Source: a virus. Taken from it: a stretch of 60,012 nt of DNA. Made by a program: the position numbers and the translations under genes. Shown here piece by piece: positions 5,701 to 21,347 of the stretch (positions within the stretch are counted from its first letter, which is position 1; each line of letters opens with the position of its first letter). The DNA is taken from positions 1 through 60,012 of IMG/VR virus record IMGVR_UViG_3300037099_000042, one strand, 5' to 3'. A model generated the notes under the pieces. The model did not search any database. It was not told the origin of the DNA and was given only the letters and a program-made list of their open reading frames with translations.

Positions 5701-5706
5701 GGCTCA

Positions 5707-6015
5707 TCAATCTATCTCCCTAACTGCGCAGACGGCTTCATCGACCGACCGCACCACGACGTATTTCCCGCCTGCCCGCTCGAATGCGGCCTGATAGGCG
5801 CGTTGCTGCGCCGATTGCCGGCCCGTCTCGGTTTTGACCTCAATCTCAATCGCTCGGCCCTGATACACCACGGCGATATCGCCCTCTCCGGGCGTGCCGA
5901 ACCGAATGACCCCGGTCGGCGTTTTCGCCACCCCGACGTTCTGGCGCTTGACCAGCGTCCCGGGGATGGCCGAAACGGCGATCAGGCACGCGCGCATGAG
6001 TTCTGTCTCGCTCAC
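5707..6015 (-). CDS. VRR-NUC domain nuclease
   Basis: 102 residues. The core FGTPGEGDIAVVYQGRAIEI followed by EVKTETGRQSAQQRAY shows the VRR-NUC (PD-(D/E)XK) pattern GxxD...ExK...Q. Stand-alone phage VRR-NUC proteins cut branched DNA such as Holliday junctions. The GTG start at 6015 overlaps the stop of the helicase gene (GTGA), pointing to coupled translation with it. It probably resolves recombination or replication intermediates. Confidence 0.88.
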   Translation of the reverse strand: MSETELMRACLIAVSAIPGTLVKRQNVGVAKTPTGVIRFGTPGEGDIAVVYQGRAIEIEVKTETGRQSAQQRAYQAAFERAGGKYVVVRSVDEAVCAVREID

Positions 6016-7319: not shown

Positions 7320-8227
7320 GCCGAAGCTCCCACTGCATGCTCTGCCCGTTCGCGGGCTCTGAACTCGCGCTCAGTCTTTCTGTCTCGCGTTATTTTTTTG
7401 GGGCCGATTGGAATGTGCTTCCAAGTCACCCTGCGTCGGATGCAACTTATTACCGATCTTGAGACGCCATAACGATCTGCTAAAACAGTTCCGTATTCTT
7501 CGGAATTAAGAATATCGATAACAATACTTTCGCTTAATTTTGCGCTTTGATGCCTTTCTCCGCATATAGAAGACGACTTTCCTTTATTCCATCCAGGCAT
7601 CAGTCCATTAGTATCCCCACGGCCTTTAGAAATCATGTCGATTACATTGTCATGATATGATCCAATGAACAAATGATCGGGATTCACACACGACCTATTG
7701 TCGCATTTATGGCAAACCAGCATACCTTCAGGTATGATTCCAAATGATATTTCATATGACACCCTATGCGCTAGGTACGTCTTATAGTTATGCCCTATAA
7801 CCCCATATCCATTTAAATGACGGCATCCGGCCCATTCCCAGCATCCGGCTCCTTTGTCAACTTTGTTCCAAAATTTGTCAGCTAAAGTCCTTTTCCCGAT
7901 CTTAGGCCATTGGCGGGATTTACGTTGTTCATCAGACAGAGTCCATCTCCCAGCCGATAGGCGATCAGCAATGTTATCGGAATGGCTCCCCGTTGCCAGA
8001 TGACTCGGATTAACACAAGTAGGGTTATGACAAAGGTGGCGCACAATCATTCCTTTCGGAATTTTTCCAAAATGTAATTCCCATGACATTCTATGGGCAA
8101 ACCTCTTGGCCCTGTCTTTACCAATTTTGCCATATCCGTCAAGGTCTCTATATCCCATCCATTCCCAGCATTCTGAATCACTAGCCTTGCTAACATTATT
8201 CCAGAACCTTTCTTCAAAAGTTTTCAT
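7316..8227 (-). CDS. Tandem HNH endonuclease with C-terminal helix-turn-helix
   Basis: 303 residues with two HNH_3-type domains. The first (residues about 1-95) has RHLCHNPTCVNPSHLATGSH and the second (about 115-205) has CHKCDNRSCVNPDHLFIGS. Each begins with a similar FWNxVxKxxxCWEWxG segment, so the protein arose by internal duplication. The C-terminal VLADRYGVSRSVISCIRRR looks like a DNA-binding helix-turn-helix. Base composition is clearly AT-richer than the flanking helicases. These are marks of a free-standing homing endonuclease. Its RBS and start form the predicted guide target of TnpB element B. Confidence 0.9.
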   Translation of the reverse strand: MKTFEERFWNNVSKASDSECWEWMGYRDLDGYGKIGKDRAKRFAHRMSWELHFGKIPKGMIVRHLCHNPTCVNPSHLATGSHSDNIADRLSAGRWTLSDEQRKSRQWPKIGKRTLADKFWNKVDKGAGCWEWAGCRHLNGYGVIGHNYKTYLAHRVSYEISFGIIPEGMLVCHKCDNRSCVNPDHLFIGSYHDNVIDMISKGRGDTNGLMPGWNKGKSSSICGERHQSAKLSESIVIDILNSEEYGTVLADRYGVSRSVISCIRRRVTWKHIPIGPKKITRDRKTEREFRARERAEHAVGASA

Positions 8228-8242
8228 AATGCGCTTCCTCTC

Positions 8243-9535
8243 GTGAACTACTCGGCCCTAAAGGGCCAAGCTTCAAGCTTCACTGGGGACCGCGCGTCCA
8301 GAAGTCTTGCGGCTTCTCTGGCGACTAACGTCCCCTCCACTTGCAGTGGCCGGAGTCCCTCCGGCCAATATCCGTAGACCTTCGTCACGGATATTCCGAG
8401 CCGCGTTGATGTCCCGATCATGGTGCGCGCCACAATGGGCGCAAGTCCATGATCGAACATCTAACGGCATCTTGTCACAGATGGAACCACAATCGGAACA
8501 AGCCTTTGAACTTGGGAACCAGCGACCGCACTTGACAAACGCTTTGCCAGCACGAGCCGATTTGTATTCCAGGAAGTTCGTTATCATGTTCCAACCAGCA
8601 TCGGCCGTAGCCTTTGCCAGACAGTGGTTGCTCATTATTCCCTTCACATTAAGGTCTTCGACGGCGATTACTTGGTTTTCGCTCACGATCCGTCGAGACA
8701 GCTTGTGGAGGTAGTCTTTGCGAGCGCACGCCACCCGCTCATGTACACGCGCTACTTTCTGGCGGGCTTTATCCCGGTTCTTTGATCCTTTTTTCTTCCG
8801 ACTAAGCGATTGCTGTTTACGCTTCAGGTTCCTTGCGGCTTTCCTGATATGGCGAGGGCTTTCAAACTTCGACCCGTCGCTGGTGACGGCGAGATGAGTC
8901 AGGCCAACATCGATGCCGATTGCCTTCCCGTCAGTCGAGACGGTCGGCATATCCACGCCATCGTCAGTCAAGATCGAGGCATAGAACTGTCCGCAAGCGT
9001 TACGGCTCACAGTTACAGTCTTGAACTTTCCAGCGACTTCACGATGGACGACGCACTTAACCCAACCGACTTTCGGCAGATAGATACGCGCCCCGTTGAT
9101 CTTTACGCGCTGCGGATACTGGATAGACTGTCGCCCATGCTTGGACTTGAACCTGGGATATCGGCCGCGCTTGGCAAAGAAGTTGTCAAACGCGCGAGCG
9201 AGGTTTTGCAACGACTGCTGCAACGCCTGGGAGTCGGCACCCTTAAGCCATTCAAACTCTTGCTTGAGCTTAGGCAGGCGAATCGCCATTGCGTGGTAAT
9301 TCAGGCCCTTGCCTGTGGCGCGGTAGAGTTCCCCGGTCGCGGCAAGGGCGTTATTCCATGCCCACCGCGCGCACCCGAACTGGACGGCCAAGGATTTGGC
9401 CTGCGTGTCGGTCGGGTAGATGCGGATACGGGTGGCGGTCAACATGGCTTAGATATATGGCATCTGCGTCTAAGGGGCAAGTGCTTTCGGCGTTGCCGAA
9501 CGTGCTATTCATCCCCGCCCTAAAGGGCCGGGTTT
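8243..9535 (-). mobile_element. Solo tnpB element B (IS200/IS605-like ends, no tnpA)
   Basis: About 1,290 bp. The left end near 9535 has the CCCGGCCCTTTAGGGCGGG hairpin and the right end has TTGGCCCTTTAGGGCCGAG then TAGTTCAC. Both ends match solo element A. The left end starts at the stop codon of the SF2 helicase, and the right end stops 16 bases before the HNH start codon. The predicted guide on the tnpB strand is GAGAGGAAGCGCATTA. Confidence 0.78.
8273..9445 (-). CDS. tnpB: TnpB RNA-guided nuclease of solo element B
   Basis: 390 residues. RuvC residues D179 (AIGIDVGLTHL), E263 (VIAVEDLNVKG) and D345 (DRDINAARNI) are all present, with a zinc motif CSDCG...CAHCG. The N-terminal NLARAFDNFF and YPRFK segments fit the guide-RNA binding domain. 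A 50-residue Gly/Ser/Arg tail follows the last motif and overlaps the region that would encode the guide RNA scaffold. No transposase is adjacent. Confidence 0.93.
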   Translation of the reverse strand: MLTATRIRIYPTDTQAKSLAVQFGCARWAWNNALAATGELYRATGKGLNYHAMAIRLPKLKQEFEWLKGADSQALQQSLQNLARAFDNFFAKRGRYPRFKSKHGRQSIQYPQRVKINGARIYLPKVGWVKCVVHREVAGKFKTVTVSRNACGQFYASILTDDGVDMPTVSTDGKAIGIDVGLTHLAVTSDGSKFESPRHIRKAARNLKRKQQSLSRKKKGSKNRDKARQKVARVHERVACARKDYLHKLSRRIVSENQVIAVEDLNVKGIMSNHCLAKATADAGWNMITNFLEYKSARAGKAFVKCGRWFPSSKACSDCGSICDKMPLDVRSWTCAHCGAHHDRDINAARNIRDEGLRILAGGTPATASGGDVSRQRSRKTSGRAVPSEA

Positions 9536-10986
9536 TACGCACGAGACTGGATAAAATCTTTCGCGGCATGCTGAGGCCATCCGCGTTTATAGCCCCGGCT
9601 TCTTGCAATCATTTTTAATCTATCGACTTTACCTCCTGCCCGCTCCAGCAGGGCTCGCCACTCGGCGCCGCTCGCCAGCGCCAGATCGATCCCTCCGGCC
9701 CACGCCAGCGGGTCTTCTCGCTTCGTCAGCCGGCCGCCGACACATTCCGGTGGAGCAATTGGTTCGCCACCGCCTTCGCGCTTCATCGGGCAGTCGTCGC
9801 AGGCTGCGCCGCAGTCCACCGCCTGACCGGCGGGGAAAATCTGGTAGCACTTCTTGCACTGACAGATACTGGCCGCGGTATGGCGTTTTGCCCTGCCATC
9901 GAGCGTCCATGCGCGGGGATCATCCGGCATGCCGAACCGCTCGACGTTTCCGACGTGATCGAGGATCACCGCGCGAGAACCATCGGATTTAGGCCGGAGC
10001 GCACGCCCTACCTGCTGGAGAAACATCGAGAGCGATCGGGTTGGCCGCAGCAAGATCGCCCCGGCGCAAACCGGAATATCGGTGCCCTCAGAAACCACGT
10101 CGCAGGAGGTGAGGACGTTCAGGCGTCCGTCTGCCAGGGCGGCGATACGGTCCCGGCGCGTTGTCCGGTCCATCGCGCCGTCGACCGACGCAGCCCGATA
10201 TCCGGCGGCACGGAATGTCTCGGCGACGTGCTCGGCGTGGGCGACGGTGACGCAGAACGCGAGTGCAGGTCGGCCACCCAGATGATCCCGATAGTGGTCG
10301 ACGGCGTCTCCGGTGATGGTCGCCCGATCCATGGCGTCGGCCAGGTCGCCGATTTTGTAGTCTCCCATGGCGGTTCCGACACCCGAGATATCGGCGATCG
10401 GCGGCGGCGCGAAATAGTCGAACGCGGCGAGATGGCCGGACCCGATCAGCGACCGGACGGACGGCCCGATTACCATGGCGTCGAAAACGTCGCCAAGACC
10501 GCGGCCATCGAGGCGTTCTGGTGTTGCTGTGACGCCGAGTACCTTGGCGGATGACCAGCGGTCCAGGATTTCGAGGTAAGTTTTACTCGGAGAGTGATGA
10601 GCTTCGTCTACAACCATAAGAGTAGGCGCCGCCATGCGATCGAGCCGCCGGCCAACCGTCTGAATCATCGCGACCTGTACCGGATCATCGGTATGCGTCC
10701 TACCCGGCATGATCAATCCATGCTGCACTCCGAACGCATCGAGCGCCCGGCTGATCTGATCGACAATCTCCTGCCTGTGCGCGACAATGGTGACGGTATT
10801 TCCGCGCGATGACGCCCCGAGTGCAATGTATGTCAGAACCACGGTTTTCCCGCTGCCGGTGGGGCTAACCGCCAGCACTCGGCGCTTCCGTGCGCCGAAC
10901 TCGGCGCGGACCCGCTGCACCAGGTCGTCCTGATAGCTGCGGAGTTTGACTCCAGCCATCGCCCCGGACACAATCGTCCCGTCCAT
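9535..10986 (-). CDS. SF2 DEAD/DEAH-type helicase with C-terminal zinc-binding region
   Basis: 483 residues. Walker A SPTGSGKTVVL, motif II VVDEAHH, motif III GVTATPERLDG, and QQVGRALRP (motif VI) define an SF2 helicase close to the RecG/UvsW/Rad25 group. Near residue 375 there is CQCKKC...CGAACDDC, a likely zinc ribbon. It may migrate or unwind branched DNA during phage replication or recombination. The ATG at 10986 is preceded by a GGGGGGA ribosome site. The stop codon coincides with the left end of tnpB element B, so the last codons may derive from the insertion. Confidence 0.88.
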   Translation of the reverse strand: MDGTIVSGAMAGVKLRSYQDDLVQRVRAEFGARKRRVLAVSPTGSGKTVVLTYIALGASSRGNTVTIVAHRQEIVDQISRALDAFGVQHGLIMPGRTHTDDPVQVAMIQTVGRRLDRMAAPTLMVVDEAHHSPSKTYLEILDRWSSAKVLGVTATPERLDGRGLGDVFDAMVIGPSVRSLIGSGHLAAFDYFAPPPIADISGVGTAMGDYKIGDLADAMDRATITGDAVDHYRDHLGGRPALAFCVTVAHAEHVAETFRAAGYRAASVDGAMDRTTRRDRIAALADGRLNVLTSCDVVSEGTDIPVCAGAILLRPTRSLSMFLQQVGRALRPKSDGSRAVILDHVGNVERFGMPDDPRAWTLDGRAKRHTAASICQCKKCYQIFPAGQAVDCGAACDDCPMKREGGGEPIAPPECVGGRLTKREDPLAWAGGIDLALASGAEWRALLERAGGKVDRLKMIARSRGYKRGWPQHAAKDFIQSRA

Positions 10987-11197
10987 CGGCTAATCCCCCC
11001 ATGGTCGCCGGCGGCACCGGGTTGGCCTGCGAAACTCGCCCGGTGCCGCCGTGTTTTATTATTCCGGCTGTTGCAGCCCAACCCGCGGTTTCCATCGCAC
11101 GCACGGCCTCGACCAGGTTAATGGCCTCGACTTGATCAATTCCAGCAGGGCGGAGCCGATCGATCAGCCGCACCAGGCGCAGTGCGATAGGGGTCAT
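10865..11197 (-). CDS. Hypothetical protein upstream of the SF2 helicase
   Basis: 110 residues. The first 45 look like real protein, with IDQVEAINLVEAVRAMETAG, while the rest is low-complexity and overlaps the helicase start by about 120 bases. The ATG at 11197 overlaps the stop of the decayed methylase (TGATG). The function is unknown. The true end may be earlier if there is a sequence error or decay in the overlap. Confidence 0.5.
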   Translation of the reverse strand: MTPIALRLVRLIDRLRPAGIDQVEAINLVEAVRAMETAGWAATAGIIKHGGTGRVSQANPVPPATMGGLADGRDDCVRGDGWSQTPQLSGRPGAAGPRRVRRTEAPSAGG

Positions 11198-11600
11198 CAC
11201 GGTGCATACTCCAACGTCGGCTTCCCGGTATTCGCCCAATCCCAAATAAACCAAGAAAAATTATGACGCGGCGACGTCTTTGTGTCTGAAAACCACCGCG
11301 GACGTTTAGTCAGAACCAACTTCATCTTAAACACTGGCAAGGTGAAAAGGTCTTTGCGACCGCTCGCGCAGTCCCATTCGTGGCGCAGCAGCATACCGCA
11401 CGAATTGTTCAGCTTTGTCGTATGGCGGATTAGTGATGATAGAAAACATCCCGGAAAAAGCAGGATACGGGTTAGTCCTGAGAAAGTCCGCGGACTCGAT
11501 GACAAGATCGCGCCAATCGCAACCGCACCCGCCGCAGCCAGTCCTAGAAACCCGACGCACACGGCGACCAGCAGCAGCCCGGTAATCGGCTCGTCTTATG
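11197..11600 (-). pseudogene. DNA adenine methyltransferase remnant with internal deletion
   Basis: One frame reads IESADFL...FSIITNPPYDKAEQFVRYAA, with the NPPY catalytic motif of N6-adenine methylases. A second frame then continues MLLRHEWDCASGRKDLFT...KRPRWFSD...FSWFIWDW to the stop at 11197. The two parts belong to one protein, but roughly 8-10 residues between FVRYA and MLL are missing, with a change of frame. The upstream AdoMet-binding part is also missing. A working relative is present at 23608-24237. A short hydrophobic stretch in the third frame is probably incidental. Confidence 0.72.
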
Positions 11601-11627
11601 GGTCGCGCGGTCGGCGCCAGTAGTTGC

Positions 11628-11825
11628 TCATGCTGCTGCGTCTCCCCGGCATTCCGCACACACGCGGTCCTGCCCGCGCTGGGCAACGGTCTCGACGGTC
11701 AGGCCGCAGGAAATGCGGCATCCGCTGTTGCGCAGACGGTCGATTGTGCGAGCGAACTCGTCGACGCAGGACGAACCGGCGGGACCGCCGCATTCGTCGC
11801 GGGCTAGGCAAGGTTGGCAGGTCAT
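11628..11825 (-). CDS. Small Cys-rich protein
   Basis: 65 residues with eight cysteines in pairs: CQPCLARDECGG, SSCVDEF, NSGCRISCG and CAECRGD. Such a layout suggests one or two zinc sites. The start ATG 11825 has an AAAGGAAA ribosome site 7-8 bases upstream. The family is not recognised. It lies between the PAPS-reductase gene group and the methylase remnant. Confidence 0.65.
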   Translation of the reverse strand: MTCQPCLARDECGGPAGSSCVDEFARTIDRLRNSGCRISCGLTVETVAQRGQDRVCAECRGDAAA

Positions 11826-11884
11826 GAGGCGTTTCCTTTCAAGGTTAGGGAATGGGTAGGGGATTGGGATTGGCGTATGCACTC

Positions 11885-12043
11885 TCAAGACGCGACCGCT
11901 CGGCATCCCGCCCATCGGGAGTCCCCTGGCTCTGGTGGGAAGTGGCGTCGGGGGCCGGTACTGCGTCCGTGGTGGACCCCGCCCCGGCCGGCGGGCGGTA
12001 TCTGATAGCGTGCGCGGAGCACGGGATTGTAGTTGCTGGTCAT
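11885..12043 (-). CDS. Small hypothetical protein coupled to the PAPS reductase
   Basis: 52 residues starting MTSNYNPVLRARYQIPPAGRGG. The start overlaps the stop of the PAPS-reductase gene (ATGA), which is the main support. It is rich in Arg, Gly and Pro and has no recognised domain. The following 60 bases (11826-11884) are AT/G-rich and hold no gene. Confidence 0.45.
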   Translation of the reverse strand: MTSNYNPVLRARYQIPPAGRGGVHHGRSTGPRRHFPPEPGDSRWAGCRAVAS

Positions 12044-12978
12044 TCGCATAAACCGTAGCTGCTGGAGCAGAGCGGCGCCGGGACGGACTTCAGCAGATCG
12101 TATTGTACCCCCCCCCTCGAAGTCTTGGCCCACTCGACCATGGTGCGGATATTGGAGTGCTGGAAAGCATGCTCGTCATCGCCTCCATCGGCACCGGCGT
12201 GGTGCAGCAGCGTCGATCGGCCCCGCTTACTCGCCGATCCGACCAGCCGCTCCCACTCGGCCACTCGCTCAACTTCGGCCGGGAACCGCTTGGCGATTTC
12301 GTGTAACTCGTCCTTGGCGACGTTAATGCAGGGCATGCAGCCGACGCGGCGCATGCCGAGCGAATAGAGCGGATTTAGACGCACGCCGCGGGAGCGGATG
12401 AACTTAACCACCTCATTGGCGGTCCACGCCGCGATGGGCCGCTCGATCCACCAGCCCTCGGCGCTAAACTCCCGATCCAGCGCGTCGGCGCGATTTCGGC
12501 TCTCGTCGCGTCGGATGCCCTGCCAGGACTCCGGCGTCTGGCCGGCGGCCATCAAATCGAGCATGCGCGCATCGAGCGGCCGGCGCTTCAGCTCCTGGGT
12601 GCAGAACTGCGCCATCCGGCTCGGGAAGCGCCCCTTCATCATGCACAAATCAAGAAACGGAACGCCGGTCGGGTGAAGAACCGCAATGGCGCGCGCGCAG
12701 ACATCGGCAGGGACGCCTTTGCCAGGCCATTTCTCGGCGATGTACCGGCGCTTGCGCTCCATGTCGGCCGTGAAGTCGGCCTTCACCGTCTCGACCCTGA
12801 CGCCGAAATCATCCTGGAAGGCACCAAACAGATATTCGAGGGTCAACGGCGATTCGTGCCCAGTGTCCGCGAACACGAACCGGCAGCGGTCACGGCCAAA
12901 GCGGTCCAGCGCCAGCAAAGCAGTCGCGGTGCTGTCCTTGCCACCGGAGACGGAGACGACGGCGATCGGGTCGGCCAT
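12040..12978 (-). CDS. PAPS reductase / ATP-pyrophosphatase family protein
   Basis: 312 residues. The PP-loop SVSGGKDSTATALLA at the N-terminus and later QELKRRPLD and a Cys pair CMPC define the phosphoadenosine-phosphosulfate reductase fold, as in CysH and DndC. Many phages carry such a protein of unknown role. Proposed roles are sulfur metabolism or DNA or tRNA thiolation, and the sequence does not settle which. It starts 4 bases after the repressor stop and so is probably transcribed with it. Confidence 0.85.
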   Translation of the reverse strand: MADPIAVVSVSGGKDSTATALLALDRFGRDRCRFVFADTGHESPLTLEYLFGAFQDDFGVRVETVKADFTADMERKRRYIAEKWPGKGVPADVCARAIAVLHPTGVPFLDLCMMKGRFPSRMAQFCTQELKRRPLDARMLDLMAAGQTPESWQGIRRDESRNRADALDREFSAEGWWIERPIAAWTANEVVKFIRSRGVRLNPLYSLGMRRVGCMPCINVAKDELHEIAKRFPAEVERVAEWERLVGSASKRGRSTLLHHAGADGGDDEHAFQHSNIRTMVEWAKTSRGGVQYDLLKSVPAPLCSSSYGLCE

Positions 12979-12981
12979 CCC

Positions 12982-13296
12982 TCAGCACTCCACGCCGTCG
13001 ACATCGTCACCGTCGCTCGGCGGAATGTAATCGGCCGGCGCATCGATCACGGTCGGCTGGCAGTCTGGTGATGGCGCATGGGGGCATTCCGCAGTCTGGC
13101 GCTCGAAGAGAACGTCATCAAGTTGGACGCCTTTCGCAGCCGCCAGCTTGGAGAGCCGCGGGATGTGGCGAGTTGGAATGGCACCGCGAGTTTTCCATAC
13201 CCAGATCATATTGGGACCAACGCCCAAGGCATTCGCCAGGGATTGGCGCCCTCCGAGTTCCGTGACCAGCCGGTCAATGTGCGTGATCGTTTCCAT
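12982..13296 (-). CDS. Helix-turn-helix repressor (CI/Cro-like)
   Basis: 104 residues. LGGRQSLANALGVGPNMIWV followed by WKTRGAIPTRH is a classic Cro/YdaS-type helix-turn-helix, with a short acidic C-terminal tail and no protease domain. The promoter upstream has an operator in its spacer (13308-13322) and its -10 box ends only 5 bases before the ATG, so the mRNA would be leaderless or nearly so, like lambda cI from PRM. It probably represses its own promoter, the Rha promoter and the rightward promoter at 14270-14298. Confidence 0.82.
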   Translation of the reverse strand: METITHIDRLVTELGGRQSLANALGVGPNMIWVWKTRGAIPTRHIPRLSKLAAAKGVQLDDVLFERQTAECPHAPSPDCQPTVIDAPADYIPPSDGDDVDGVEC

Positions 13297-13301
13297 GCCC
13301 T

Positions 13302-13331
13302 AACCTACTTGCGTAACGCAAGCTTCGTCAA
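13302..13331 (-). promoter_or_regulatory. Promoter of the repressor gene
   Basis: On the minus strand TTGACG (13331-13326) and TAGGTT (13307-13302) are separated by 18 bases. The perfect palindrome CTTGCGTAACGCAAG fills the spacer, so binding there would block this promoter. The start codon follows 5 bases after the -10 box. Confidence 0.7.
13308..13322. promoter_or_regulatory. Operator O1
   Basis: CTTGCGTAACGCAAG, a perfect 15-bp palindrome around a central A. Two related sites are at 14245-14259 and 14277-14291. It probably binds the helix-turn-helix protein encoded next to it. Confidence 0.78.
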
Positions 13332-13348
13332 GCTCGTTTTTGTCCAGT

Positions 13349-14185
13349 CTAATGCAGCGACAATTCCGGCTCATCGGGCTTGGCGCGGCGCTTTGGCTTC
13401 CCCGTTACCGCGTTCGGACCCAACACCAGCGCCAGCTTCGCTAACCCGGCCGGTGTAACCATCACTTGCTCGACCACCTTGTCGCCGCCATTCACGGTAT
13501 CAGCCACCGTCTTGACTTTGTGCTCAATGTAGCCTTGCCGGATCACATCATGGTGCGCCATCCAATTCTTGTTTCCGTTCCGCCGAAAGGTCCATTTGTT
13601 GGCGTGCAGCCAGTCAAACAGGTCCTTGATCCGGGTGCATTGAAGCGCCTTATCTGCCTCTGACACGCTCATAGAGCCGGTGGCGCTGGCGATCCGATCG
13701 AACCCATCAACCTTCGGCTTGGCGTGCTCAACGAGCCTCTCAGCCGTGAGAGCGCGGCGTTCCGCATCGATTCTCTTGCCGACGTGATCGGCCAGAAGCT
13801 GCTGGAGCACCTTCGGGTCCGAAAGGTCGGGCAGGGCGACGGGGCCGCGCAGCGCCTCTTCCATGGCGCTGAAGCGAGCCAGATAGGCCAGTTTGAAGCG
13901 AATCGCCTTCTGACCGTCATACCCCATGACCAGCAATGTGAATCCGTCCCTGGTCATATCAAAGGTGCGGCGCTCTATCCCATTCCCGTCAGGCGCTGCC
14001 TGTTCGGCGAAGAGCGAACTCCCCAAATCTGGGGAGTCTATTTGTTTCAACATGTTATCGATGTCGCGCAACACGTGATCGTGCCGCTTTTCAAAGAACG
14101 CCGCCACGTCGCGGCTGTTGGCGTAGATCGCCCCTTCCCGCTCAAAGACCACCGGTTCGTCACCGGCCGCAATGCTGTTCGCCAT
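13349..14185 (-). CDS. Rha-family regulator with ANT (KilA-C) domain
   Basis: 278 residues. The N-terminal 100 residues match phage Rha proteins: NSRDVAAFFEKRHDHVLRDI, and FDMTRDGFTLLVMGYDGQKA. The C-terminal half (CTRIKDLFDWLHANKWTFRR, then HHDVIRQGYIEHK, TPAGLAKLA) is the antirepressor/KilA-C domain. Such proteins interfere with lysogeny or lytic choice. The gene sits between operators O1 and O2/O3. Its own promoter overlaps O2, so it is presumably silent when the repressor is bound. Confidence 0.88.
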   Translation of the reverse strand: MANSIAAGDEPVVFEREGAIYANSRDVAAFFEKRHDHVLRDIDNMLKQIDSPDLGSSLFAEQAAPDGNGIERRTFDMTRDGFTLLVMGYDGQKAIRFKLAYLARFSAMEEALRGPVALPDLSDPKVLQQLLADHVGKRIDAERRALTAERLVEHAKPKVDGFDRIASATGSMSVSEADKALQCTRIKDLFDWLHANKWTFRRNGNKNWMAHHDVIRQGYIEHKVKTVADTVNGGDKVVEQVMVTPAGLAKLALVLGPNAVTGKPKRRAKPDEPELSLH

Positions 14186-14230
14186 GATGCTTGCTCCTAT
14201 CGACGCCAGCCCATCGGCTGGCTATGTCGC

Positions 14231-14258
14231 ACCATAACAAGAAACTTGCAAAACGCAA
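14231..14258 (-). promoter_or_regulatory. Leftward promoter for the Rha/ANT gene
   Basis: On the minus strand TTGCGT (14258-14253) and TATGGT (14236-14231) with a 16-base spacer. The -35 box lies inside operator O2. The gene begins at 14185, about 40 bases downstream, with GATAGGAGCAAGC as ribosome site. Confidence 0.6.
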
Positions 14259-14259
14259 G
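14245..14259. promoter_or_regulatory. Operator O2
   Basis: CTTGCAAAACGCAAG, matching O1 at 12 of 15 bases and keeping the outer arms CTTGC and GCAAG. It lies 32 bp (about three helical turns) from O3, a spacing that suits cooperative binding. Confidence 0.75.
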
Positions 14260-14269
14260 CGAAAGGTTA

Positions 14270-14298
14270 TTGACAGCTTGCAGCGCGCAAGCCACAAT
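14270..14298 (+). promoter_or_regulatory. Rightward promoter of the 14.4-24.6 kb operon
   Basis: TTGACA at 14270-14275, a 17-base spacer, then CACAAT at 14293-14298. Operator O3 occupies almost the entire spacer, so a bound repressor would exclude RNA polymerase. About 145 bases of untranslated leader with no gene follow before the first start codon at 14447. Confidence 0.75.
14277..14291. promoter_or_regulatory. Operator O3
   Basis: CTTGCAGCGCGCAAG, the third copy of the repressor site, with both outer arms intact, inside the spacer of the rightward promoter. Confidence 0.75.
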
Positions 14299-14446: not shown

Positions 14447-14719
14447 GTGAGTGACAGCAGCGAAATCCGGATCGTCATCGCCCAGCGCGGATGGGTGTTT
14501 GTCGGCAAGTACAGCACCGATGGCGATGATGTTGTGATCAGTGGTGGGTCCGTTATCCGCCGATGGGGAACGACAAGAGGAATCGGAGAGATTGCAGCCA
14601 ATGGGCCGACCAAGAGCACGATTCTCGACGCCAGCCCCGATATCTGGATTCACAAGCTATCGGTAGTCGCCTCGATCGTCGCCAATGCCGAGAAGTGGGC
14701 AAACTATGTTGTCCGGTGA
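14447..14719 (+). CDS. Hypothetical protein X, first gene of the rightward operon
   Basis: 90 residues, starting GTG at 14447 with a GGAG ribosome site 9 bases upstream. It reads SEIRIVIAQRGWVFVGKYST early and ends NAEKWANYVVR. I do not recognise the family. Its last ~14 codons and the ~30 bases after them recur at 15850-15900, fused to a hexamer array, so this gene's 3' end took part in the duplications of this locus. Confidence 0.72.
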   Translation: MSDSSEIRIVIAQRGWVFVGKYSTDGDDVVISGGSVIRRWGTTRGIGEIAANGPTKSTILDASPDIWIHKLSVVASIVANAEKWANYVVR

Positions 14720-14819
14720 TGGCGAAAGCCATGCCTTGACCGGCGACGGAAACGGCGACGGCTACGGCGGCGGCGACGGCTACGGAAACGACTACGGAAA
14801 CGGCTTCGGAAACGGATGA
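14706..14819 (+). CDS. Gly/Asn/Asp/Tyr-repeat mini-protein (array A1)
   Basis: 37 residues starting at ATG 14706, overlapping gene X by 14 bases in another frame. After MLSGDGESHALTG it consists of GDGNGDGYGGGD-type dipeptides encoded by GGC/GGA + GAC/TAC/AAC hexamers. Ends GFGNG and overlaps the next ATG (ATGA). Whether it is expressed is unknown. Confidence 0.4.
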   Translation: MLSGDGESHALTGDGNGDGYGGGDGYGNDYGNGFGNG

Positions 14820-15180
14820 ATGTCATGGACTGGATCGAAATCGAGCAAAACGGAAACGGCGACGGCATAGGCTACGGAAACGGCGACGGAAGCGGAAAAG
14901 GAAACGGCGACGGAAGCGGATACGTTTCAGGCGCAGGAAACGGCGCAGGAAACGGCTACGGAGACAACGACGGAGACGGCGCCGGCGCAGGCTACGGAGA
15001 AAACGACGGAGACGGAAAAGGAAACGGCTACGGAAACGACTACGGAAACGGCTTCGGAAACGGATGAATGTCATGGACTGGATCGAAATCGAGCAAAACG
15101 GAAACGGCGACGGCATAGGCTACGGAAACGGCGACGGAAACGGTTACGGCTACGGCTACGGCTACGGCTACAGAAAAGGG
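14736..15180 (+). repeat. Hexanucleotide array A (GGN-NAC units)
   Basis: Degenerate hexamers GG(C/A)(G/T/A)AC, coding Gly alternating with Asp, Tyr, Asn or Phe. The array is broken by two copies of a ~30-bp unique piece coding MDWIEIEQN (near 14825 and 15073), which is the start of gene Z at 16611. The two copies are 248 bp apart and continue identical into the hexamers, so a tandem duplication has occurred within the array. Confidence 0.85.
14816..15067 (+). CDS. Gene Z start fused to Gly-rich array (A2)
   Basis: 83 residues. It begins MNVMDWIEIEQN, matching the MSWIEIEQN start of gene Z (16611), then changes to GNGDGIGYGNGDGSGKGN-type repeats. It ends GNDYGNGFGNG like array A1. The ATG at 14825 may be the real start. 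This is a chimera of a gene's 5' end and hexamer repeats. Confidence 0.45.
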   Translation: MNVMDWIEIEQNGNGDGIGYGNGDGSGKGNGDGSGYVSGAGNGAGNGYGDNDGDGAGAGYGENDGDGKGNGYGNDYGNGFGNG

Positions 15181-15183
15181 TAA
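15064..15183 (+). CDS. Gene Z start fused to Gly-rich array (A3)
   Basis: 39 residues: MNVMDWIEIEQN again, then a short GNGDGNGYGYGYGYG stretch ending YRKG. Its stop and the AAAAGGG that precedes it also provide the ribosome site for gene Y1, which starts 5 bases later. Confidence 0.45.
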   Translation: MNVMDWIEIEQNGNGDGIGYGNGDGNGYGYGYGYGYRKG

Positions 15184-15187
15184 AATC

Positions 15188-15526
15188 ATGGACATCAACG
15201 AACTTACGATCGGACAAGCGAAAGAACTTGCCGCACTGTTGAATACTGGATCTACAAAAAACGGCGCTCATGCCTGGGAAATCGGGAAAAACTACCTCAT
15301 CCGAACAGTGACCATGATCGACACTGGCCGACTGGTGTTGGTGACCGAGCAGGAGCTGGTGCTGGACGAAGCCTCATGGATCGCCGACACCGGGCGCTTT
15401 AGTGATGCGTTAGAGACGTCGAATTTCACCGAAGTGGAGCCGTTCCCGAACGGTCGGGTTATCATCGGACGCGGCGCAATCATTGACGCTGTGTTGCTCC
15501 ACGATTTGCCCAGGAGCCAGAAATGA
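15188..15526 (+). CDS. Hypothetical protein Y, copy 1
   Basis: 112 residues: MDINELTIGQAKELAALL at the start, then KNYLIRTVTMIDTGRLVLVT, and GRGAIIDAVLLHDLPRSQK at the end. A second copy at 16134-16472 differs at only a few residues. This kind of small protein ('IGKNYLIRTVTMxxTGRL') occurs in many phages with unknown function. The ATGA overlap at the end couples it to the next repeat protein. Confidence 0.82.
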   Translation: MDINELTIGQAKELAALLNTGSTKNGAHAWEIGKNYLIRTVTMIDTGRLVLVTEQELVLDEASWIADTGRFSDALETSNFTEVEPFPNGRVIIGRGAIIDAVLLHDLPRSQK

Positions 15527-15882
15527 TCGCCGCAGTTTCTCGCGCAGGAGTTGATTCTGCATGGTCGGGGTCGCGTTCGGGTTCGGGTTCGGGGTCGTGG
15601 TCGGGGTCATGGTCATGGTCGGGAGCATGGTCGTGGTCGCGGTCGGGGTCGCGGTCGTGGTCGGGTTCGGGTTCGGTGTCGCGGTCGGGGGCGCGGTCGT
15701 GGTCATGGTCGGGTTCGGTGGCGGGTTCGGTGGCGCGGTCGTGGTCGGGTTCGGGTTCGGTGGCGGGGTCGCGGTCGCTGGCGCGGTCGCGGTCGGGTTC
15801 GCGGTCGCTGGCGCGGTCGCGGTCGTGGTCGGGTTCGGTGTCGGGGTCGAATGCCGAGAAGTGGGCAAACTATGTTCGGTGA
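15523..15882 (+). CDS. Ser-Gly/Arg/Trp repeat protein (array B)
   Basis: 119 residues. It starts MIAAVSRAGVDSAW, runs through about 48 dipeptides of Ser with Gly, Arg, Trp or Val, and ends NAEKWANYVR, the C-terminus of protein X. So its head is the natural gene downstream of Y (copy 2 at 16469), its middle is the array and its tail is borrowed from X. Confidence 0.45.
   Translation: MIAAVSRAGVDSAWSGSRSGSGSGSWSGSWSWSGAWSWSRSGSRSWSGSGSVSRSGARSWSWSGSVAGSVARSWSGSGSVAGSRSLARSRSGSRSLARSRSWSGSVSGSNAEKWANYVR
15564..15849 (+). repeat. Hexanucleotide array B (TCG-NGG units)
   Basis: Degenerate hexamers GGTC(G/A)(G/C/T) repeated about 47 times, for example GGTCGGGGTCGCGGTCGTGG. The longest simple array in the window. 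It is open in all three forward frames and in at least one reverse frame. Confidence 0.9.
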
Positions 15883-16129
15883 TGGCGAAAGCCCCGCCTT
15901 GACCGGCTACGGAAGAAACGGCGACGGCGACGGCTGCGGCTGCGGCTGCGGCTCCGGCGACGGAAACGGCTACGGCCACGGCGACAGCGACGGAAACGGC
16001 GACGGCTACAGGGACGTCTACGGCGACGGCTACGGCTACGGAACCGGCTACGGAAAAGGCGGCGGCGACGGCTACGGCGACGGAAACGGTTACGGCTACG
16101 GCTACGGCTACGGCTACAGAAAAGGGTAA
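15872..16129 (+). CDS. Gly-rich repeat protein (array C)
   Basis: 85 residues starting MFGDGESPALTGYG, the counterpart of the A1 mini-protein start, followed by GDGDGCGCGCGSGDGNGY-type units and ending GYGYGYGYGYRKG just like A3. It overlaps array B's frame at its start and supplies the ribosome site for Y copy 2. Confidence 0.45.
   Translation: MFGDGESPALTGYGRNGDGDGCGCGCGSGDGNGYGHGDSDGNGDGYRDVYGDGYGYGTGYGKGGGDGYGDGNGYGYGYGYGYRKG
15907..16126 (+). repeat. Hexanucleotide array C (GGN-NAC units)
   Basis: Same type as array A, with extra TGC, TCC and CAC second halves. Its last ~50 bases are identical to the end of array A. Confidence 0.85.
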
Positions 16130-16133
16130 AATC

Positions 16134-16472
16134 ATGGACATCAACGAACTTACGATCGGACAAGCTAAAGAACTTGCCGCACTGTTGAATACTGGATCTA
16201 CAAAAAACGGCGATCATGCCTGGGAAATCGGGAAAAACTACCTCATCCGCACCGTTACCATGATCGACACTGGCCGACTGGTGGCTGTGACCGAGCAGGA
16301 GTTGGTCCTCGAAGATGCCGCATGGATCGCCGACACCGGGCGTTTTAGTGATGCGTTGAAGACGTTGAATTTCACCGAAGTGGAGCCGTTCCCGAACGGT
16401 CGGGTAATCGTCGGACGTGGCGCAATCATTGACGCTGTGTTGCTCCACGATTTGCCCAGGAGCCAGAAATGA
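16134..16472 (+). CDS. Hypothetical protein Y, copy 2
   Basis: 112 residues, nearly identical to copy 1 (15188-15526), offset by 946 bp. Differences are conservative, such as KNGDHAW for KNGAHAW and LVAVT for LVLVT. Many are at third positions, so both copies have been under selection or split recently. Confidence 0.82.
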   Translation: MDINELTIGQAKELAALLNTGSTKNGDHAWEIGKNYLIRTVTMIDTGRLVAVTEQELVLEDAAWIADTGRFSDALKTLNFTEVEPFPNGRVIVGRGAIIDAVLLHDLPRSQK

Positions 16473-16582
16473 TCGCCGCAGTTTCTCGCGCAGGAGTTGA
16501 TTCTGCGTGGTCGCGGTCGTGGTCGTGGTCGCGGTCGTGGTCGTGGTCGCGGTCGGGATCGTGGTCGCGGTCGGGATCGTAA
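16469..16582 (+). CDS. Ser/Arg/Trp repeat mini-protein (array D)
   Basis: 37 residues: MIAAVSRAGVDSAW and then 12 dipeptides of Ser with Arg, Trp or Gly, ending at TAA 16580-16582. The same head as the array B protein, with a much shorter array. Overlaps the Y copy 2 stop (ATGA). Confidence 0.45.
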   Translation: MIAAVSRAGVDSAWSRSWSWSRSWSWSRSGSWSRSGS

Positions 16583-16610
16583 TTTCACCGATTGATCTGG
16601 AGGTTGCGCC

Positions 16611-16964
16611 ATGAGCTGGATCGAAATCGAGCAAAACAGCATCGTCATTGCCGGCTTGGAAATCGAAATCGATGTTCGCGCCGCCGGCTCCTACAGCCCA
16701 GGCTATCGCGGCGCTTGCGATCGCTATCAGCAGATCGAACCCGACGAGCCTGCATCGTTTGAGGTCAGCGCCGTCGAGTTTCGGACCAGCAAGCGGGACG
16801 CCACAACCAATGCGTGGGTTCCAACCAGCGACTGGCAAAGCATTCCGGTGGTCATGCTGCTGCCGGAGCACATGACCGCCATCGCCGACCAGTGCATCGC
16901 CTACCACCAGGATATGGACCAACGATCCCGCGAAGACGAGGCTGAAGCCCGGAGGGCAGCATGA
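16611..16964 (+). CDS. Hypothetical protein Z
   Basis: 117 residues starting MSWIEIEQNSIVIAG with a CTGGAGG ribosome site. Central ...GACDRYQQIEPDEPASFEV..., then HMTAIADQCIAYHQDMDQ. Soluble, family not recognised. Its first ten codons were copied twice into array A. It overlaps the next gene by 4 bases. Confidence 0.78.
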   Translation: MSWIEIEQNSIVIAGLEIEIDVRAAGSYSPGYRGACDRYQQIEPDEPASFEVSAVEFRTSKRDATTNAWVPTSDWQSIPVVMLLPEHMTAIADQCIAYHQDMDQRSREDEAEARRAA

Positions 16965-17155
16965 TGACCAGCGGAGACCACCAGCTTTCGGCGAACGCCG
17001 TCATGGAAGCTGCATTACGCAAGATCGCATACAAGCTCGACCAAAGCTACGGTCAGTTCAAGGACTCAGTCCCAAGGCTTTGCGCCGAAGATATTGCGGA
17101 GTCCTATACGATAGCCAGGGAAGCCATCGACGCACTAGAAACAGCGAGACGGTAA
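16961..17155 (+). CDS. Small hypothetical protein
   Basis: 64 residues, mostly helical (DHQLSANAVMEAALRKIAYK), start overlapping the stop of Z (ATGATGA). It ends 12 bases before the tRNA. No recognised domain. Confidence 0.65.
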   Translation: MMTSGDHQLSANAVMEAALRKIAYKLDQSYGQFKDSVPRLCAEDIAESYTIAREAIDALETARR

Positions 17156-17167
17156 ATAGTACAGAAT

Positions 17168-17253
17168 GCGCGCTTGGCGAAATAGGTAGACGCATCGGAC
17201 TTAAAATCCGATTCCTCATGGAGTGCTCGGTTCGAGTCCGGCAGCGCGCACCA
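17168..17253 (+). tRNA. tRNA-Leu (anticodon UAA)
   Basis: 86 nt including an encoded CCA. The acceptor stem GCGCGCT pairs with AGCGCGC. The anticodon stem TCGGA/TCCGA holds the loop CTTAAAA, with anticodon TAA. There is a long variable arm, as expected for Leu, and the T-loop is TTCGAGT. One T-stem pair (C-C at the stem base) is mismatched. It reads the UUA codon, which is rare in high-GC hosts. Confidence 0.93.
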
Positions 17254-17310
17254 CCACCCCCCAAACTCAGCCGGGGCTTCGGCTCCGGCACTTTTCCCCA
17301 GGAGGCTGCC

Positions 17311-17463
17311 ATGAACGACTTCACCCTAAAGCTCAAGGGCCGCGAGTTTGTCCTAAACAGCGGCGTCGTTTTTATCTCGCTCGGGACGGTGCGTCTGACC
17401 GACTTGCTCACCATGGGGCTGGTGCCGGTGCCGGGCAGCCGAGGGCGGTGGGTGTGGGGATGA
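17311..17463 (+). CDS. Small hypothetical protein
   Basis: 50 residues, starting MNDFTLKLKGREFVLNSG after a strong CAGGAGG ribosome site. It has a hydrophobic centre and a basic end. It overlaps the next gene by ATGA. Confidence 0.65.
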   Translation: MNDFTLKLKGREFVLNSGVVFISLGTVRLTDLLTMGLVPVPGSRGRWVWG

Positions 17464-17648
17464 TGAAGTCCTCTGGTGCAAGCGACATCGTTGATATTGA
17501 TCTCGATGTCATTACAGAAACCGAGAAAGCATACCGCGTCAGTAATAGCGAAAGGAGGTTTTGGCTCCCAAAGTCTCAAGTCGAATATGACGGCGCAAGG
17601 ACGTTCTCAATGCCGGAATGGCTGGCCCATGAGAAGGAGTTGATCTGA
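17460..17648 (+). CDS. Small hypothetical protein
   Basis: 62 residues. DIVDIDLDVITETEKAYRV and SNSERRFWLPKSQVEYD resemble short phage proteins that are widespread and uncharacterised. The start overlaps the stop of the previous gene. Its end touches the next start (17648). Confidence 0.7.
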   Translation: MMKSSGASDIVDIDLDVITETEKAYRVSNSERRFWLPKSQVEYDGARTFSMPEWLAHEKELI

Positions 17649-17863
17649 TGATGGTAACGAACACGCCGACCCGCAGGGCGGATCGGAAGCCCGCCCATCC
17701 CGCCGCAAAAGCTATGGCGGAGTGTGTTGTTTCTGATCATCCTAACCTCACTTGGAATAGCGTATCAGAAGAGATCAGGACGGCATTGATTAACCAAGCC
17801 GATAGGGTGATCGCTGCGCTAGATGTCGCAGGATGGTTAATCGTGCCTAATGATGGAGGTTAG
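17648..17863 (+). CDS. Small hypothetical protein
   Basis: 71 residues. After a basic N-terminus it reads AKAMAECVVSDHPNLTWNSV and ALINQADRVIAALDVAGWLI. The ATG at 17648 follows GAAGGAG. No family recognised. Confidence 0.68.
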   Translation: MMVTNTPTRRADRKPAHPAAKAMAECVVSDHPNLTWNSVSEEIRTALINQADRVIAALDVAGWLIVPNDGG

Positions 17864-17867
17864 CATC

Positions 17868-18047
17868 ATGCACAAACCAGACTTCACCGGATGGGAATGG
17901 TGGGCGGCTTTATCTTGGCATGTGATAGCCAACTATAAAGCGTCTACGGAAGAACTGCGCAGCTTTGAGTTCCCCGTGGTGCCGTCAAAACAGTTGCCGC
18001 CGACGGAATACGACTCTTTCGTTATTCACGAAAAAGCGGAGTGCTGA
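17868..18047 (+). CDS. Small hypothetical protein
   Basis: 59 residues, MHKPDFTGWEWWAALSWHV at the start, with four Trp residues in the first 20. The ribosome site TGGAGG lies 8 bases upstream and decides this start over the one 18 bases earlier. Function unknown. Confidence 0.65.
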   Translation: MHKPDFTGWEWWAALSWHVIANYKASTEELRSFEFPVVPSKQLPPTEYDSFVIHEKAEC

Positions 18048-18051
18048 AACG

Positions 18052-18555
18052 ATGACCTACATCACCGACCGCCGCCGCGTCGAGATCGCGGCAATCCCGC
18101 TACTGTTCCTCAAGGTCGCGTCCCGCATCGCTGTTCATTGCGTCGAGATCGGCGAGTGCGAGCGTGCCGAAGACCACACCGAACTCGGGCCGGCGATGCA
18201 CTATCTCGGCCTGGCTGCGGCCGAGGCATTACTCGATGGCCGTGACCGCCAGTCCGCCGATAAGTTGCTGCGCCGATCCAGCCGTCTCGCCAAAGACCTG
18301 ATGGAGAACAAGGCCCGCACGGGGGTTCTTCCGGCCTATCGGCACGCACAGCGCTTACTGACCGAGTTGCTGGAGAGCGAGCGGCTGGTCCTCTACGCCG
18401 GATCGTCGTTCGACCACGGATATGAGTTGCTCGACGCCGCAATCCTGTCCGAGCCGGCGAATGCTGAGGATCTGGAGCAAATCGACAAGTCCGCAACCAA
18501 ATCCGCGCGGCGCACGCTGCGGCGGATCGAGGAGAAGGGGCATTTCCATGCCTGA
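18052..18555 (+). CDS. Hypothetical helical protein
   Basis: 167 residues, rich in Ala, Leu, Glu and Arg, predicted to be almost all helix (AMHYLGLAAAEALLDGRDRQ; RHAQRLLTELLESERLVLYA). No recognised domain. It overlaps the following nuclease gene by 8 bases, so it may work with the recombination genes downstream. Confidence 0.72.
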   Translation: MTYITDRRRVEIAAIPLLFLKVASRIAVHCVEIGECERAEDHTELGPAMHYLGLAAAEALLDGRDRQSADKLLRRSSRLAKDLMENKARTGVLPAYRHAQRLLTELLESERLVLYAGSSFDHGYELLDAAILSEPANAEDLEQIDKSATKSARRTLRRIEEKGHFHA

Positions 18556-19534
18556 TACCGCCCAAACCCGCCAGCCGCTCATTACGGTTCCTGGCGGCTA
18601 TCCCGACATCCCGCCCGCCACCTACCACTCGCCCGGCATCACCCCCACCCCGGCCCTGTCGGCATCGTTGGCGGCGGCTCTGGCGGACCCGGACGGTTGC
18701 CCAGCCCTTGCCTGGGTGGACAGCCCGCTCAATCCCAATCGCCCCGAGCGCGAGACGGACGCCATGCGCATGGGCACCGGCGCCCACATGGCGCTACTGG
18801 AGCCGGCCCGGTTCGAGACCGCCGTCAAGGTCATCGCGGGCGGATTCACTAAAAAGGGCGATTGGTCCGAGGGGTGGGTTTGCGAAGACGCAAAGTCCCA
18901 GGTCGCCGCCGCCCGCGCCGCTGGCATCGTGCCCATGAAGCAAGACGAACACGACCGCATTCTCCAGATGCGCCTTGCGCTCCGCAACCAACTCCCCGGC
19001 GTCCCGTTCCGCACGGTGGACGAGGTACTCGACGGCGTATTCGATGGCGGACAGCCCGAGTTCTCGATGTTCTGGCAGGAGCCGGATCGCGACGGTATCT
19101 GGTGCAAGGCCCGCGTCGATTACATGCATACCCTGCCCGATGGCCGGCTGCTCATGATCGACTACAAGGCCACCGCCGACGTGACGACTGATTTCTTCTC
19201 CCGGCAGATCAATGACCGAGGTCACCACATCCGGGGCGCCCACTATCTCCGGGCCGGTGAAATGGCGATCGGACGCCATCCCGATCTTTACCTCTATGTC
19301 TGCCAGATGACCAAATTTCCGTTCCTCGCGCGGGCGTTCGAGGTTGACCCGAACGACCTGGAAACCGGCCGGAACCAATGGCTGTTCGCCACGCAGAAGT
19401 TCGCCGAGTGCATGAAGTCTGCCATCTGGCCGTCGTTCCGGAGCCACCCGCGCCGGGCCACCGTGGTTTCCATGCCGACCTGGGCGCGGATGAAGATTGA
19501 CGCGGCGCATGATGCCGCTGTGGGAGGTGCGTGA
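18548..19534 (+). CDS. RecE-like exonuclease, DUF3799/PDDEXK family
   Basis: 328 residues. YHSPGITPTPALSASLAAAL at the N-terminus, then MRMGTGAHMALLEPARFE, and a catalytic LPDGRLLMIDYKATADV (D-x-K) fit the PDDEXK nuclease domain of exonuclease VIII (RecE). It would digest one strand from double-strand ends for single-strand annealing recombination. The next gene encodes the likely ATPase/annealing partner. The stop overlaps that gene's start. Confidence 0.88.
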   Translation: MPDTAQTRQPLITVPGGYPDIPPATYHSPGITPTPALSASLAAALADPDGCPALAWVDSPLNPNRPERETDAMRMGTGAHMALLEPARFETAVKVIAGGFTKKGDWSEGWVCEDAKSQVAAARAAGIVPMKQDEHDRILQMRLALRNQLPGVPFRTVDEVLDGVFDGGQPEFSMFWQEPDRDGIWCKARVDYMHTLPDGRLLMIDYKATADVTTDFFSRQINDRGHHIRGAHYLRAGEMAIGRHPDLYLYVCQMTKFPFLARAFEVDPNDLETGRNQWLFATQKFAECMKSAIWPSFRSHPRRATVVSMPTWARMKIDAAHDAAVGGA

Positions 19535-20541
19535 TGGGAATACTTCAAATAGAGCCGGTTTCCAGGTCGGGGATGAAGCTGTTGATCAGCCTCTATGGCC
19601 TGAGCGAGACCGGAAAGACGCTGTCCGCCCTCAAGCTGGCCGCCGGCATTGAGCCGAACCCGGCCAAGCGCATGATGCTGGACACGGAAGGCGGTCAGCG
19701 CGGCCGGGCCTATGTCGATCTGATCGCGGGTGGGTATCTGTATGGCGCGCTCACGCCGCCGTTCACGCCCGAACGGTACATCGAGGCGCTGAACGAAATT
19801 GAGGAGCACGGCGTCAATGTATTGGTGATCGACAGCGTGTCGCACGCCTGGTTTGCCGAGGGCGGTGTCCTCGATATGGTCGAGGCCGCGACCGAGAAGA
19901 ACGATATGGCGAAGTGGGCGAAGCCCAAGCGCCGTCTTGGTAAGATGACCCGCCGTATGTTGTCTTCCGATATGCACATCATCCTGTGCAGCCGGGCCAA
20001 ACAGCCGCTCATTGAAGAGTACGTTGATGGACGCAAGAAGTTGACCCTTGGCCCCGTCGTTCCAGTTCAGGAAAAGACGCTTCGCTATGACATGACGATT
20101 ATGGCGCAGATGCTCGGTGACGGACGGTTCACCATCGCTGCCCCCGCCGGTAAATGCCCCGGATCACTGCGGCCGGCATTCGCCACCGAACTGATGAATG
20201 AGGCGATGGGTCAAAAATTGGCATCGTGGGTCTCCGGCGGTGAGTTCAAGACGGCCGGAGACCGGCATATCGAGATTGAGGCGCGCGAGGTGGCTGAACG
20301 CGGCACCGACGCATTTCGCGCATGGTGGAAGGCCGCGGCGCCCGGCCATCGCGACCACCTGAAACCGATGATGGCGAATTTCCAGTCTATCGCCAAAGCG
20401 GCTGACGATGACGCCGAAGCGCTCCGGCGTGGCGAAGGGAATGATGACGATTCCGACGCCGGGGGCGCGCCATTCCAGATGCCAACCTCTGTTTCGACCG
20501 ACCCGGACGGATACCCGGCGACCGCCCATAACCAAGGATAG
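19534..20541 (+). CDS. AAA/RecA-like ATPase (Sak4-like recombination protein)
   Basis: 335 residues. Walker A is YGLSETGKTLSALKLA, DTEGGQRG follows, and Walker B is VLVIDSVSH; IILCSRAKQ is a probable sensor. This is the RecA-core NTPase form (AAA_24) shared by phage Sak4 single-strand annealing proteins. Its position directly after a RecE-like nuclease supports that role. The C-terminal 100 residues are a charged tail ending in an acidic, disordered stretch. Confidence 0.85.
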   Translation: MGILQIEPVSRSGMKLLISLYGLSETGKTLSALKLAAGIEPNPAKRMMLDTEGGQRGRAYVDLIAGGYLYGALTPPFTPERYIEALNEIEEHGVNVLVIDSVSHAWFAEGGVLDMVEAATEKNDMAKWAKPKRRLGKMTRRMLSSDMHIILCSRAKQPLIEEYVDGRKKLTLGPVVPVQEKTLRYDMTIMAQMLGDGRFTIAAPAGKCPGSLRPAFATELMNEAMGQKLASWVSGGEFKTAGDRHIEIEAREVAERGTDAFRAWWKAAAPGHRDHLKPMMANFQSIAKAADDDAEALRRGEGNDDDSDAGGAPFQMPTSVSTDPDGYPATAHNQG

Positions 20542-21307: not shown

Positions 21308-21347
21308 GGGCTTGACTCCTGTCGTTAGACCGACTATACTACAACCC

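What the first reader, a model, noticed from the sequence alone, without database searches (positions are those of the whole stretch)
13302..14298. Compact genetic switch with three 15-bp operators inside promoter spacers
CTTGC-N5-GCAAG occurs at 13308, 14245 and 14277. Each overlaps a promoter: the repressor promoter (TTGACG-N18-TAGGTT), the Rha promoter (TTGCGT-N16-TATGGT) and the rightward promoter (TTGACA-N17-CACAAT). O2 and O3 are 32 bp apart. One helix-turn-helix protein could control its own gene, the Rha/ANT antirepressor and the rightward operon at once.
Basis: partly seen in the sequence, partly recalled or inferred. Interest (0 to 1): 0.7.

Follow-up and report, generated by a model that had tools for sequence, protein, structure and literature searches.

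The report
Phage Cro-type regulator with three operators
A small DNA-binding protein of an uncultured tailed phage very probably shuts off its own gene and two other early phage promoters through three copies of one 15-letter DNA word; comparison with about twenty related phages shows that this is the standard wiring of its protein family, here with an unusual gene (rha) where the usual main repressor gene should be.

Summary
CTTGC-N5-GCAAG occurs three times in the 60-kb record (0.10 expected), only at 13308, 14245 and 14277, always over a promoter-like sequence. The 104-residue protein belongs to the YdaS/'carph-isopro' family of Cro-like helix-turn-helix proteins. Relatives supply the link that the window alone cannot. 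Phage-type genes of this family often carry a 15-bp dyad (5-5-5) ending 8-13 bp before their own start codon: in a held-out set 10 of 30 do, against 0.4-0.7 expected, and 0 of 37 controls do. The half-site changes together with the recognition helix. The same word often recurs as a distal cluster 0.8-1.9 kb upstream. In relatives the two clusters flank a CI-type repressor, as lambda OL and OR do. By that map O1 is the OR-like autogenous operator, O2/O3 are the OL-like pair, the rightward operon is the PL-like recombination operon, and the protein is a Cro. Unusual: no CI is found; rha sits in its place, co-directional with cro. The bare word is also the operator of host HxlR regulators (83 of 120 genomic pairs), so it does not identify its binder alone. 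Binding, promoter activity and Rha's antirepressor role are untested.

The parts
12982..13296 (-). cro-like regulator gene, 104 aa, YdaS / carph-isopro helix-turn-helix family
   Evidence: NF046037 47.9 bits (cut-off 38) and PF15943 YdaS 34.5 bits (cut-off 30); AlphaFold model (mean pLDDT 67, about 80-85 over the HTH region) has N15 Cro and Xfaso 1 Cro as nearest folds in PDB, no match at E <= 0.001
13308..13322 (.). O1, CTTGCGTAACGCAAG: autogenous operator (OR-like), ends 11 bp before the start codon
   Evidence: same position relative to ATG in relatives
13326..13331 (-). -35-like hexamer TTGACG of the cro-like gene
13302..13307 (-). -10-like hexamer TAGGTT, 5 nt before ATG; transcript would be (nearly) leaderless
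   Evidence: inference
13349..14185 (-). rha: pRha domain plus KilAC/ANT domain, 278 aa; sits between the two operator clusters where relatives have a CI gene
   Evidence: PF09669 5e-25, PF03374 6e-21; phrog_63 5e-45
14245..14259 (.). O2, CTTGCAAAACGCAAG: covers the -35-like hexamer of the leftward rha promoter
14253..14258 (-). -35-like hexamer TTGCGT of rha (weak)
14231..14236 (-). -10-like hexamer TATGGT of rha
14277..14291 (.). O3, CTTGCAGCGCGCAAG: inside the spacer of the rightward (PL-like) promoter; 32 bp from O2
14270..14275 (+). -35 hexamer TTGACA of the rightward promoter
14293..14298 (+). -10 hexamer CACAAT of the rightward promoter
14447..20541 (+). rightward (PL-like) operon: 90-aa ORF, low-complexity repeat ORFs, exonuclease VIII-like 18422-19534, Sak4-related 19531-20541
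1315..12978 (-). leftward (PR-like) genes after the cro-like gene: PAPS-reductase-like 12040-12978, helicase 9535-10986, Dda-like helicase 6012-7319, primase 1315-4092, with TnpB-like insertions

Best explanation
O1, O2 and O3 are operators of the 104-residue protein, a Cro-type dimeric repressor. Inferred mechanism: after infection the rightward promoter (recombination genes), the rha promoter and the autogenous promoter fire. As the protein accumulates, dimers on the 15-bp dyads cover the promoter DNA and exclude RNA polymerase, turning down rightward early transcription (O3), rha (O2) and the protein's own operon (O1). O2 and O3 lie about three helical turns apart and may be filled together. 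In lambda terms O1 is OR-like and O2/O3 are OL-like. The segment between them, which in relatives holds a CI repressor gene facing away from cro, here holds rha, facing the same way as cro and able to read through into it. Shown: sites, promoter-like hexamers, protein family, conservation of the layout, co-variation of half-site with recognition helix. Inferred: binding, repression, order of filling, any action of Rha.
For: Family and fold: YdaS/carph-isopro above curated cut-offs, Cro proteins as nearest structures. Independent phage L030, found by the DNA pair motif alone, has the same word 3 times exactly plus 2 one-mismatch copies, beside its own carph-isopro gene; apart from a ParB-like domain that gene is the only one it shares with the window. 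Other members have their own dyads in the same place: TTTGC (Methylobacterium), GCTAC (Bradyrhizobium phage and ctOK67), and others. Operator-in-spacer pattern in 9 of 26 phage-type or other family genes vs 0.045 expected, 0 of 37 in large chromosomal members. Held-out set: 10 of 30 with a 5-5-5 dyad 8-13 bp before ATG vs 0.4 (shuffles) and 0.7 (other offsets). Half-site follows recognition helix: Mantel p 5e-5 for 18 systems, 0.0075 with one per near-identical helix; held-out alone p 3.5e-4; Met-type helices all have half-sites ending TAC, p 6e-4. Distal copies of the same word 0.8-1.9 kb upstream in eight relatives, as a pair or cluster in seven, around a CI-type gene, S24-bearing in several. 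ctOK67 has a matching OL-like site upstream of a similar repeat-protein/recombination operon.
Against: No binding or expression data. About two thirds of held-out family genes show no perfect dyad at the autogenous position. The word itself is also the HxlR operator. The rha promoter is weak. The window gene is second in a possible rha-cro transcript, not first in its operon as in relatives. Model confidence is only moderate (pLDDT 67) and no PDB match is significant on its own.
Confidence: 0.78

Rival explanations
1. The 104-residue protein is the maintenance (CI-like) repressor of a one-repressor switch, and Rha/ANT is its antirepressor.
For: No other CI-like gene was found: no Peptidase_S24 and only a sub-threshold HTH_3 match at 901-969. 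Rha carries an ANT/KilAC domain and is under the same operators.
Against: By family and position relatives of this protein are the Cro, next to a separate CI. The experimentally studied YdaS of CP-933P is a Cro analogue (PMC8630535). No tyrosine integrase was found, so lysogeny itself is unproven. Rha relatives lie in other contexts.
Confidence: 0.2
2. The sites are bound by a host HxlR-family regulator whose operator they mimic, so the phage promoters answer to host redox or electrophile stress.
For: 83 of 120 genomic loci with two such dyads lie next to HxlR genes; the extended HxlR consensus RCTTGCRNNNYGCAAGY fits all three window sites; pair spacings overlap (31-38 bp).
Against: No HxlR gene in this phage or in L030; relatives of the phage protein have other half-sites in the same positions, following the recognition helix. 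Most other viral contigs with the pair are coding or tandem repeats or hairpins.
Confidence: 0.06
3. The three dyads are chance or only mark RNA structure such as terminators.
For: O2 scores as a terminator-like hairpin in a simple scan.
Against: 3 vs 0.10 expected; the only clustered dyad family in the window; conserved position in many relatives. The O2 'terminator' has a 7-pair stem with only 3 G-C pairs and lies in the promoter region.
Confidence: 0.03

Closest known systems
YdaS / PaaR2 immunity region of E. coli prophage CP-933P (PMC8630535)
   Same: YdaS-family Cro analogue binding palindromic operators over its own and the divergent promoter; OL/OR-like control
   Different: CP-933P has four 18-bp palindromes and a CI analogue (PaaR2); here 15-bp dyads, one at the autogenous promoter and two distal, no CI found, rha between them
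Myovirus ctOK67 (MW202613, Manatee Spring)
   Same: carph-isopro gene with a dyad in its promoter spacer, an OL-like site upstream of a repeat-protein ('lamprin') plus Erf/exonuclease operon
   Different: half-site GCTAC, 14-bp dyad, and a normal S24/HTH CI-type gene between the clusters
Phage contig L030 (IMGVR_UViG_3300037755_001324)
   Same: identical operator word CTTGC-N5-GCAAG, pairs 33-34 bp apart, carph-isopro protein with a similar recognition helix
   Different: CI-like gene present and divergent; otherwise almost unrelated phage
Phage lambda cI/cro with OL and OR; N15 and Xfaso 1 Cro
   Same: Cro fold (nearest PDB matches), two operator clusters flanking the immunity gene, recombination genes on the OL side and replication genes on the OR side
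   Different: no CI found, different dyad length and word, rha in the immunity position
HxlR-family operators in bacteria
   Same: same DNA word, often paired 31-38 bp apart
   Different: winged-helix regulator not present in this phage; other genetic context

Membership tests
carph-isopro / YdaS (NF046037, PF15943) | profile score above curated cut-off | tested here: met
   47.9 vs 38 bits and 34.5 vs 30 bits
Cro-type repressor | Cro-like helix-turn-helix fold | tested here: met
   N15 Cro, Xfaso 1 Cro and XPH1 fill the top eight Foldseek matches, E 0.02-0.06, model pLDDT 67
Cro-type repressor | operator over its own promoter | tested here: met
   O1 in TTGACG-N18-TAGGTT, 11 bp before ATG; conserved position in relatives
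Cro-type repressor | binds operators and represses | not testable with these tools
   needs gel shift, footprint, reporter
lambda-like immunity region | two operator clusters of one word flanking the immunity gene | tested here: met
   O1 and O2/O3 about 0.94 kb apart; same layout in L030, L300, L357, L368, L372, L376, L379
lambda-like immunity region | CI repressor gene between the clusters, divergent from cro | tested here: not met
   rha there, co-directional with cro; no S24 in the record
lambda-like immunity region | integrase | tested here: inconclusive
   no PF00589 match; a 264-aa protein at 346-1140 matches transposase, integrase and invertase phrogs; whether the record is complete is not known
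Rha/ANT antirepressor | pRha plus KilAC domains | tested here: met
   PF09669 and PF03374 above cut-off
Rha/ANT antirepressor | relieves repression | not testable with these tools
   needs co-expression assay
HxlR regulon | HxlR gene adjacent | tested here: not met
   no PF01638 match in the window or L030 contig

The most novel reading that the evidence does not exclude
A lambda-type OL/OR region that has lost its CI and works with only a Cro and a Rha/ANT protein seated in CI's place, with operators whose word also fits host HxlR proteins, so that a host stress regulator could share control of the phage's early promoters.
Probability: 0.07. Interest if true: 0.75.

Novelty: new variant of a known kind. 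Interest (0 to 1): 0.5.

Why it matters
The region itself is a CI-less variant of a familiar switch. The comparison it triggered is of more general use: phage-type members of the uncharacterised carph-isopro family (no paper in the held library names it) often announce their operator by position, so the DNA word can be read straight from the genome, and word and recognition helix change together. That gives about 18 protein-operator pairs for testing a recognition code in Cro proteins, a group known for fold changes (Xfaso 1 and Pfl 6). It also warns that an identical dyad can serve two unrelated regulator families.

Tried and rejected
Close homologues of the 104-residue protein in viral contigs: none by single sequence or two-row profile. 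Single-site scan ACTTGCGNNNCGCAAGT: 59 loci; apart from two marginal helix-turn-helix neighbours (L047, L059) no relatives, so treated as chance. Viral pair scans: apart from L030 the examined hits were coding, tandem repeats or hairpins. The genomic pair scan led to HxlR, not to phages. Rha relatives show no conserved neighbourhood with this switch. Family search by NF046037 in Alphaproteobacteria returned mostly large chromosomal proteins, kept as controls. The CTTGC site 150 bp upstream of the L330 gene is not at its promoter and was not counted. O2 as terminator: rejected.

Full report
Observation. The record is an IMG/VR virus contig of 60,012 bases and equals the window; it encodes a tail sheath and terminase, so it is a myovirus. 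Chance is excluded both for the exact motif (3 vs 0.10) and after allowing for free choice of the palindrome. O1 and O3 sit between promoter-like hexamers; O2 covers the first hexamer of a weak promoter-like match.

Protein. The 104-residue protein scores above the curated cut-offs of NF046037 (carph-isopro) and PF15943 (YdaS). Its model, built from only two sequences, is moderate (pLDDT 67, about 80-85 over the helices), and its closest PDB neighbours are N15 Cro, Xfaso 1 Cro and XPH1. The YdaS of prophage CP-933P has been shown to be a Cro analogue that binds its own promoter and the divergent one (PMC8630535).

Motif first. In 2.9 million viral contigs only 8 loci have two exact dyads 2-32 bp apart; the one with separate intergenic operators is L030, and there the sites flank a carph-isopro gene. 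Its 33.8-kb contig has three exact and two meaningful one-mismatch sites, all in that region. So the word alone cannot name the binder.

Protein first. Reading upstream of relatives settles it as far as sequence can. Methylobacterium (L300) has TTTGC dyads starting 59 and 24 bp before its gene and a second pair about 0.75-0.8 kb away; the Bradyrhizobium phage (L299) and ctOK67 (L298) have GCTAC dyads; others have other words, but in the same place. A pattern TTGAC + short gap + dyad occurs in 9 of 26 phage-type or other family genes against 0.045 expected, and in none of 37 large chromosomal members. Five of the nine helped to form the hypothesis; the other four alone exceed the expectation of about 0.04. 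A new sample of 397 Hyphomicrobiales genomes gave 30 further genes: 10 have a 5-5-5 dyad ending 8-13 bp before ATG against 0.4-0.7 expected. The half-site follows the recognition helix (Mantel p 5e-5, or 0.0075 with one system per near-identical helix; held-out set alone 3.5e-4). Helices ending in Met-Lys/Arg have half-sites ending TAC in 6 of 6, the Trp type in 1 of 11.

Layout. In L030, L300, L357, L368, L372, L376 and L379 the same word recurs as a distal pair or cluster 0.8-1.9 kb upstream, and in L360 as a single exact copy. Between proximal and distal sites lies a CI-type repressor gene facing away from the cro-like gene, with HTH and/or Peptidase_S24 domains in those tested (L030, L300, L357, L376; also L299, L359, L366). 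ctOK67 has the same plan, with an OL-like site in front of a left operon of repeat proteins, Erf and exonuclease, much like the window's rightward operon. Mapped on this plan, O1 of the window is the OR-like autogenous operator, O2/O3 the OL-like pair, the rightward operon the PL-like recombination operon and the leftward genes (helicases, primase) the PR-like replication genes. The odd feature is the middle: rha, co-directional with cro, instead of a divergent CI. No S24 repressor and no tyrosine integrase were found.

Mechanism. Most likely the protein is an early-gene turn-off repressor acting by promoter occlusion at all three promoters; read-through from rha into it would make O2 part of its own feedback too. 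Whether the phage is temperate, and whether Rha opposes the protein, cannot be told from sequence. Binding and repression themselves remain untested.

Noticed in passing
L240 1492-2862, L336 182-1585 (minus), L265 1495-3012, L345: In some Alphaproteobacteria the carbamoyl-phosphate synthase small subunit CarA (L240, L336, L265; L345 by its N-terminus) carries an N-terminal carph-isopro helix-turn-helix domain and has GGGAA-N5-TTCCC-type dyads upstream: a candidate self-regulating enzyme.
   Followed up: partly
window 14741-16580: Long imperfect arrays of 6-bp units on the + strand encoding GNGDGYG-type and GSWSGSW-type sequence in several frames, between near-copies of a 112-aa ORF (15188-15526, 16134-16472); weakly similar repeats in Rheinheimera, Eggerthella and ctOK67 phages.
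   Followed up: partly
120 loci L095-L214: Paired RCTTGCRNNNYGCAAGY dyads 31-38 bp apart are a very widespread operator of HxlR regulators across phyla (83 of 120 loci).
   Followed up: partly
window 4416-5564, 8273-9445, 21306-22547, 57135-58280, 59035-59985: Several TnpB-like (IS200/IS605-type) genes in one phage record, recognised by eye from the translations only.
   Followed up: no
L218-L238: Large chromosomal proteins with an N-terminal FGGIRPMA..KL helix-turn-helix domain of the same family, without the autogenous dyad.
   Followed up: no
window 55427-56146: A second antirepressor-type gene (phrog_130, anti-repressor Ant) far from this region.
   Followed up: no
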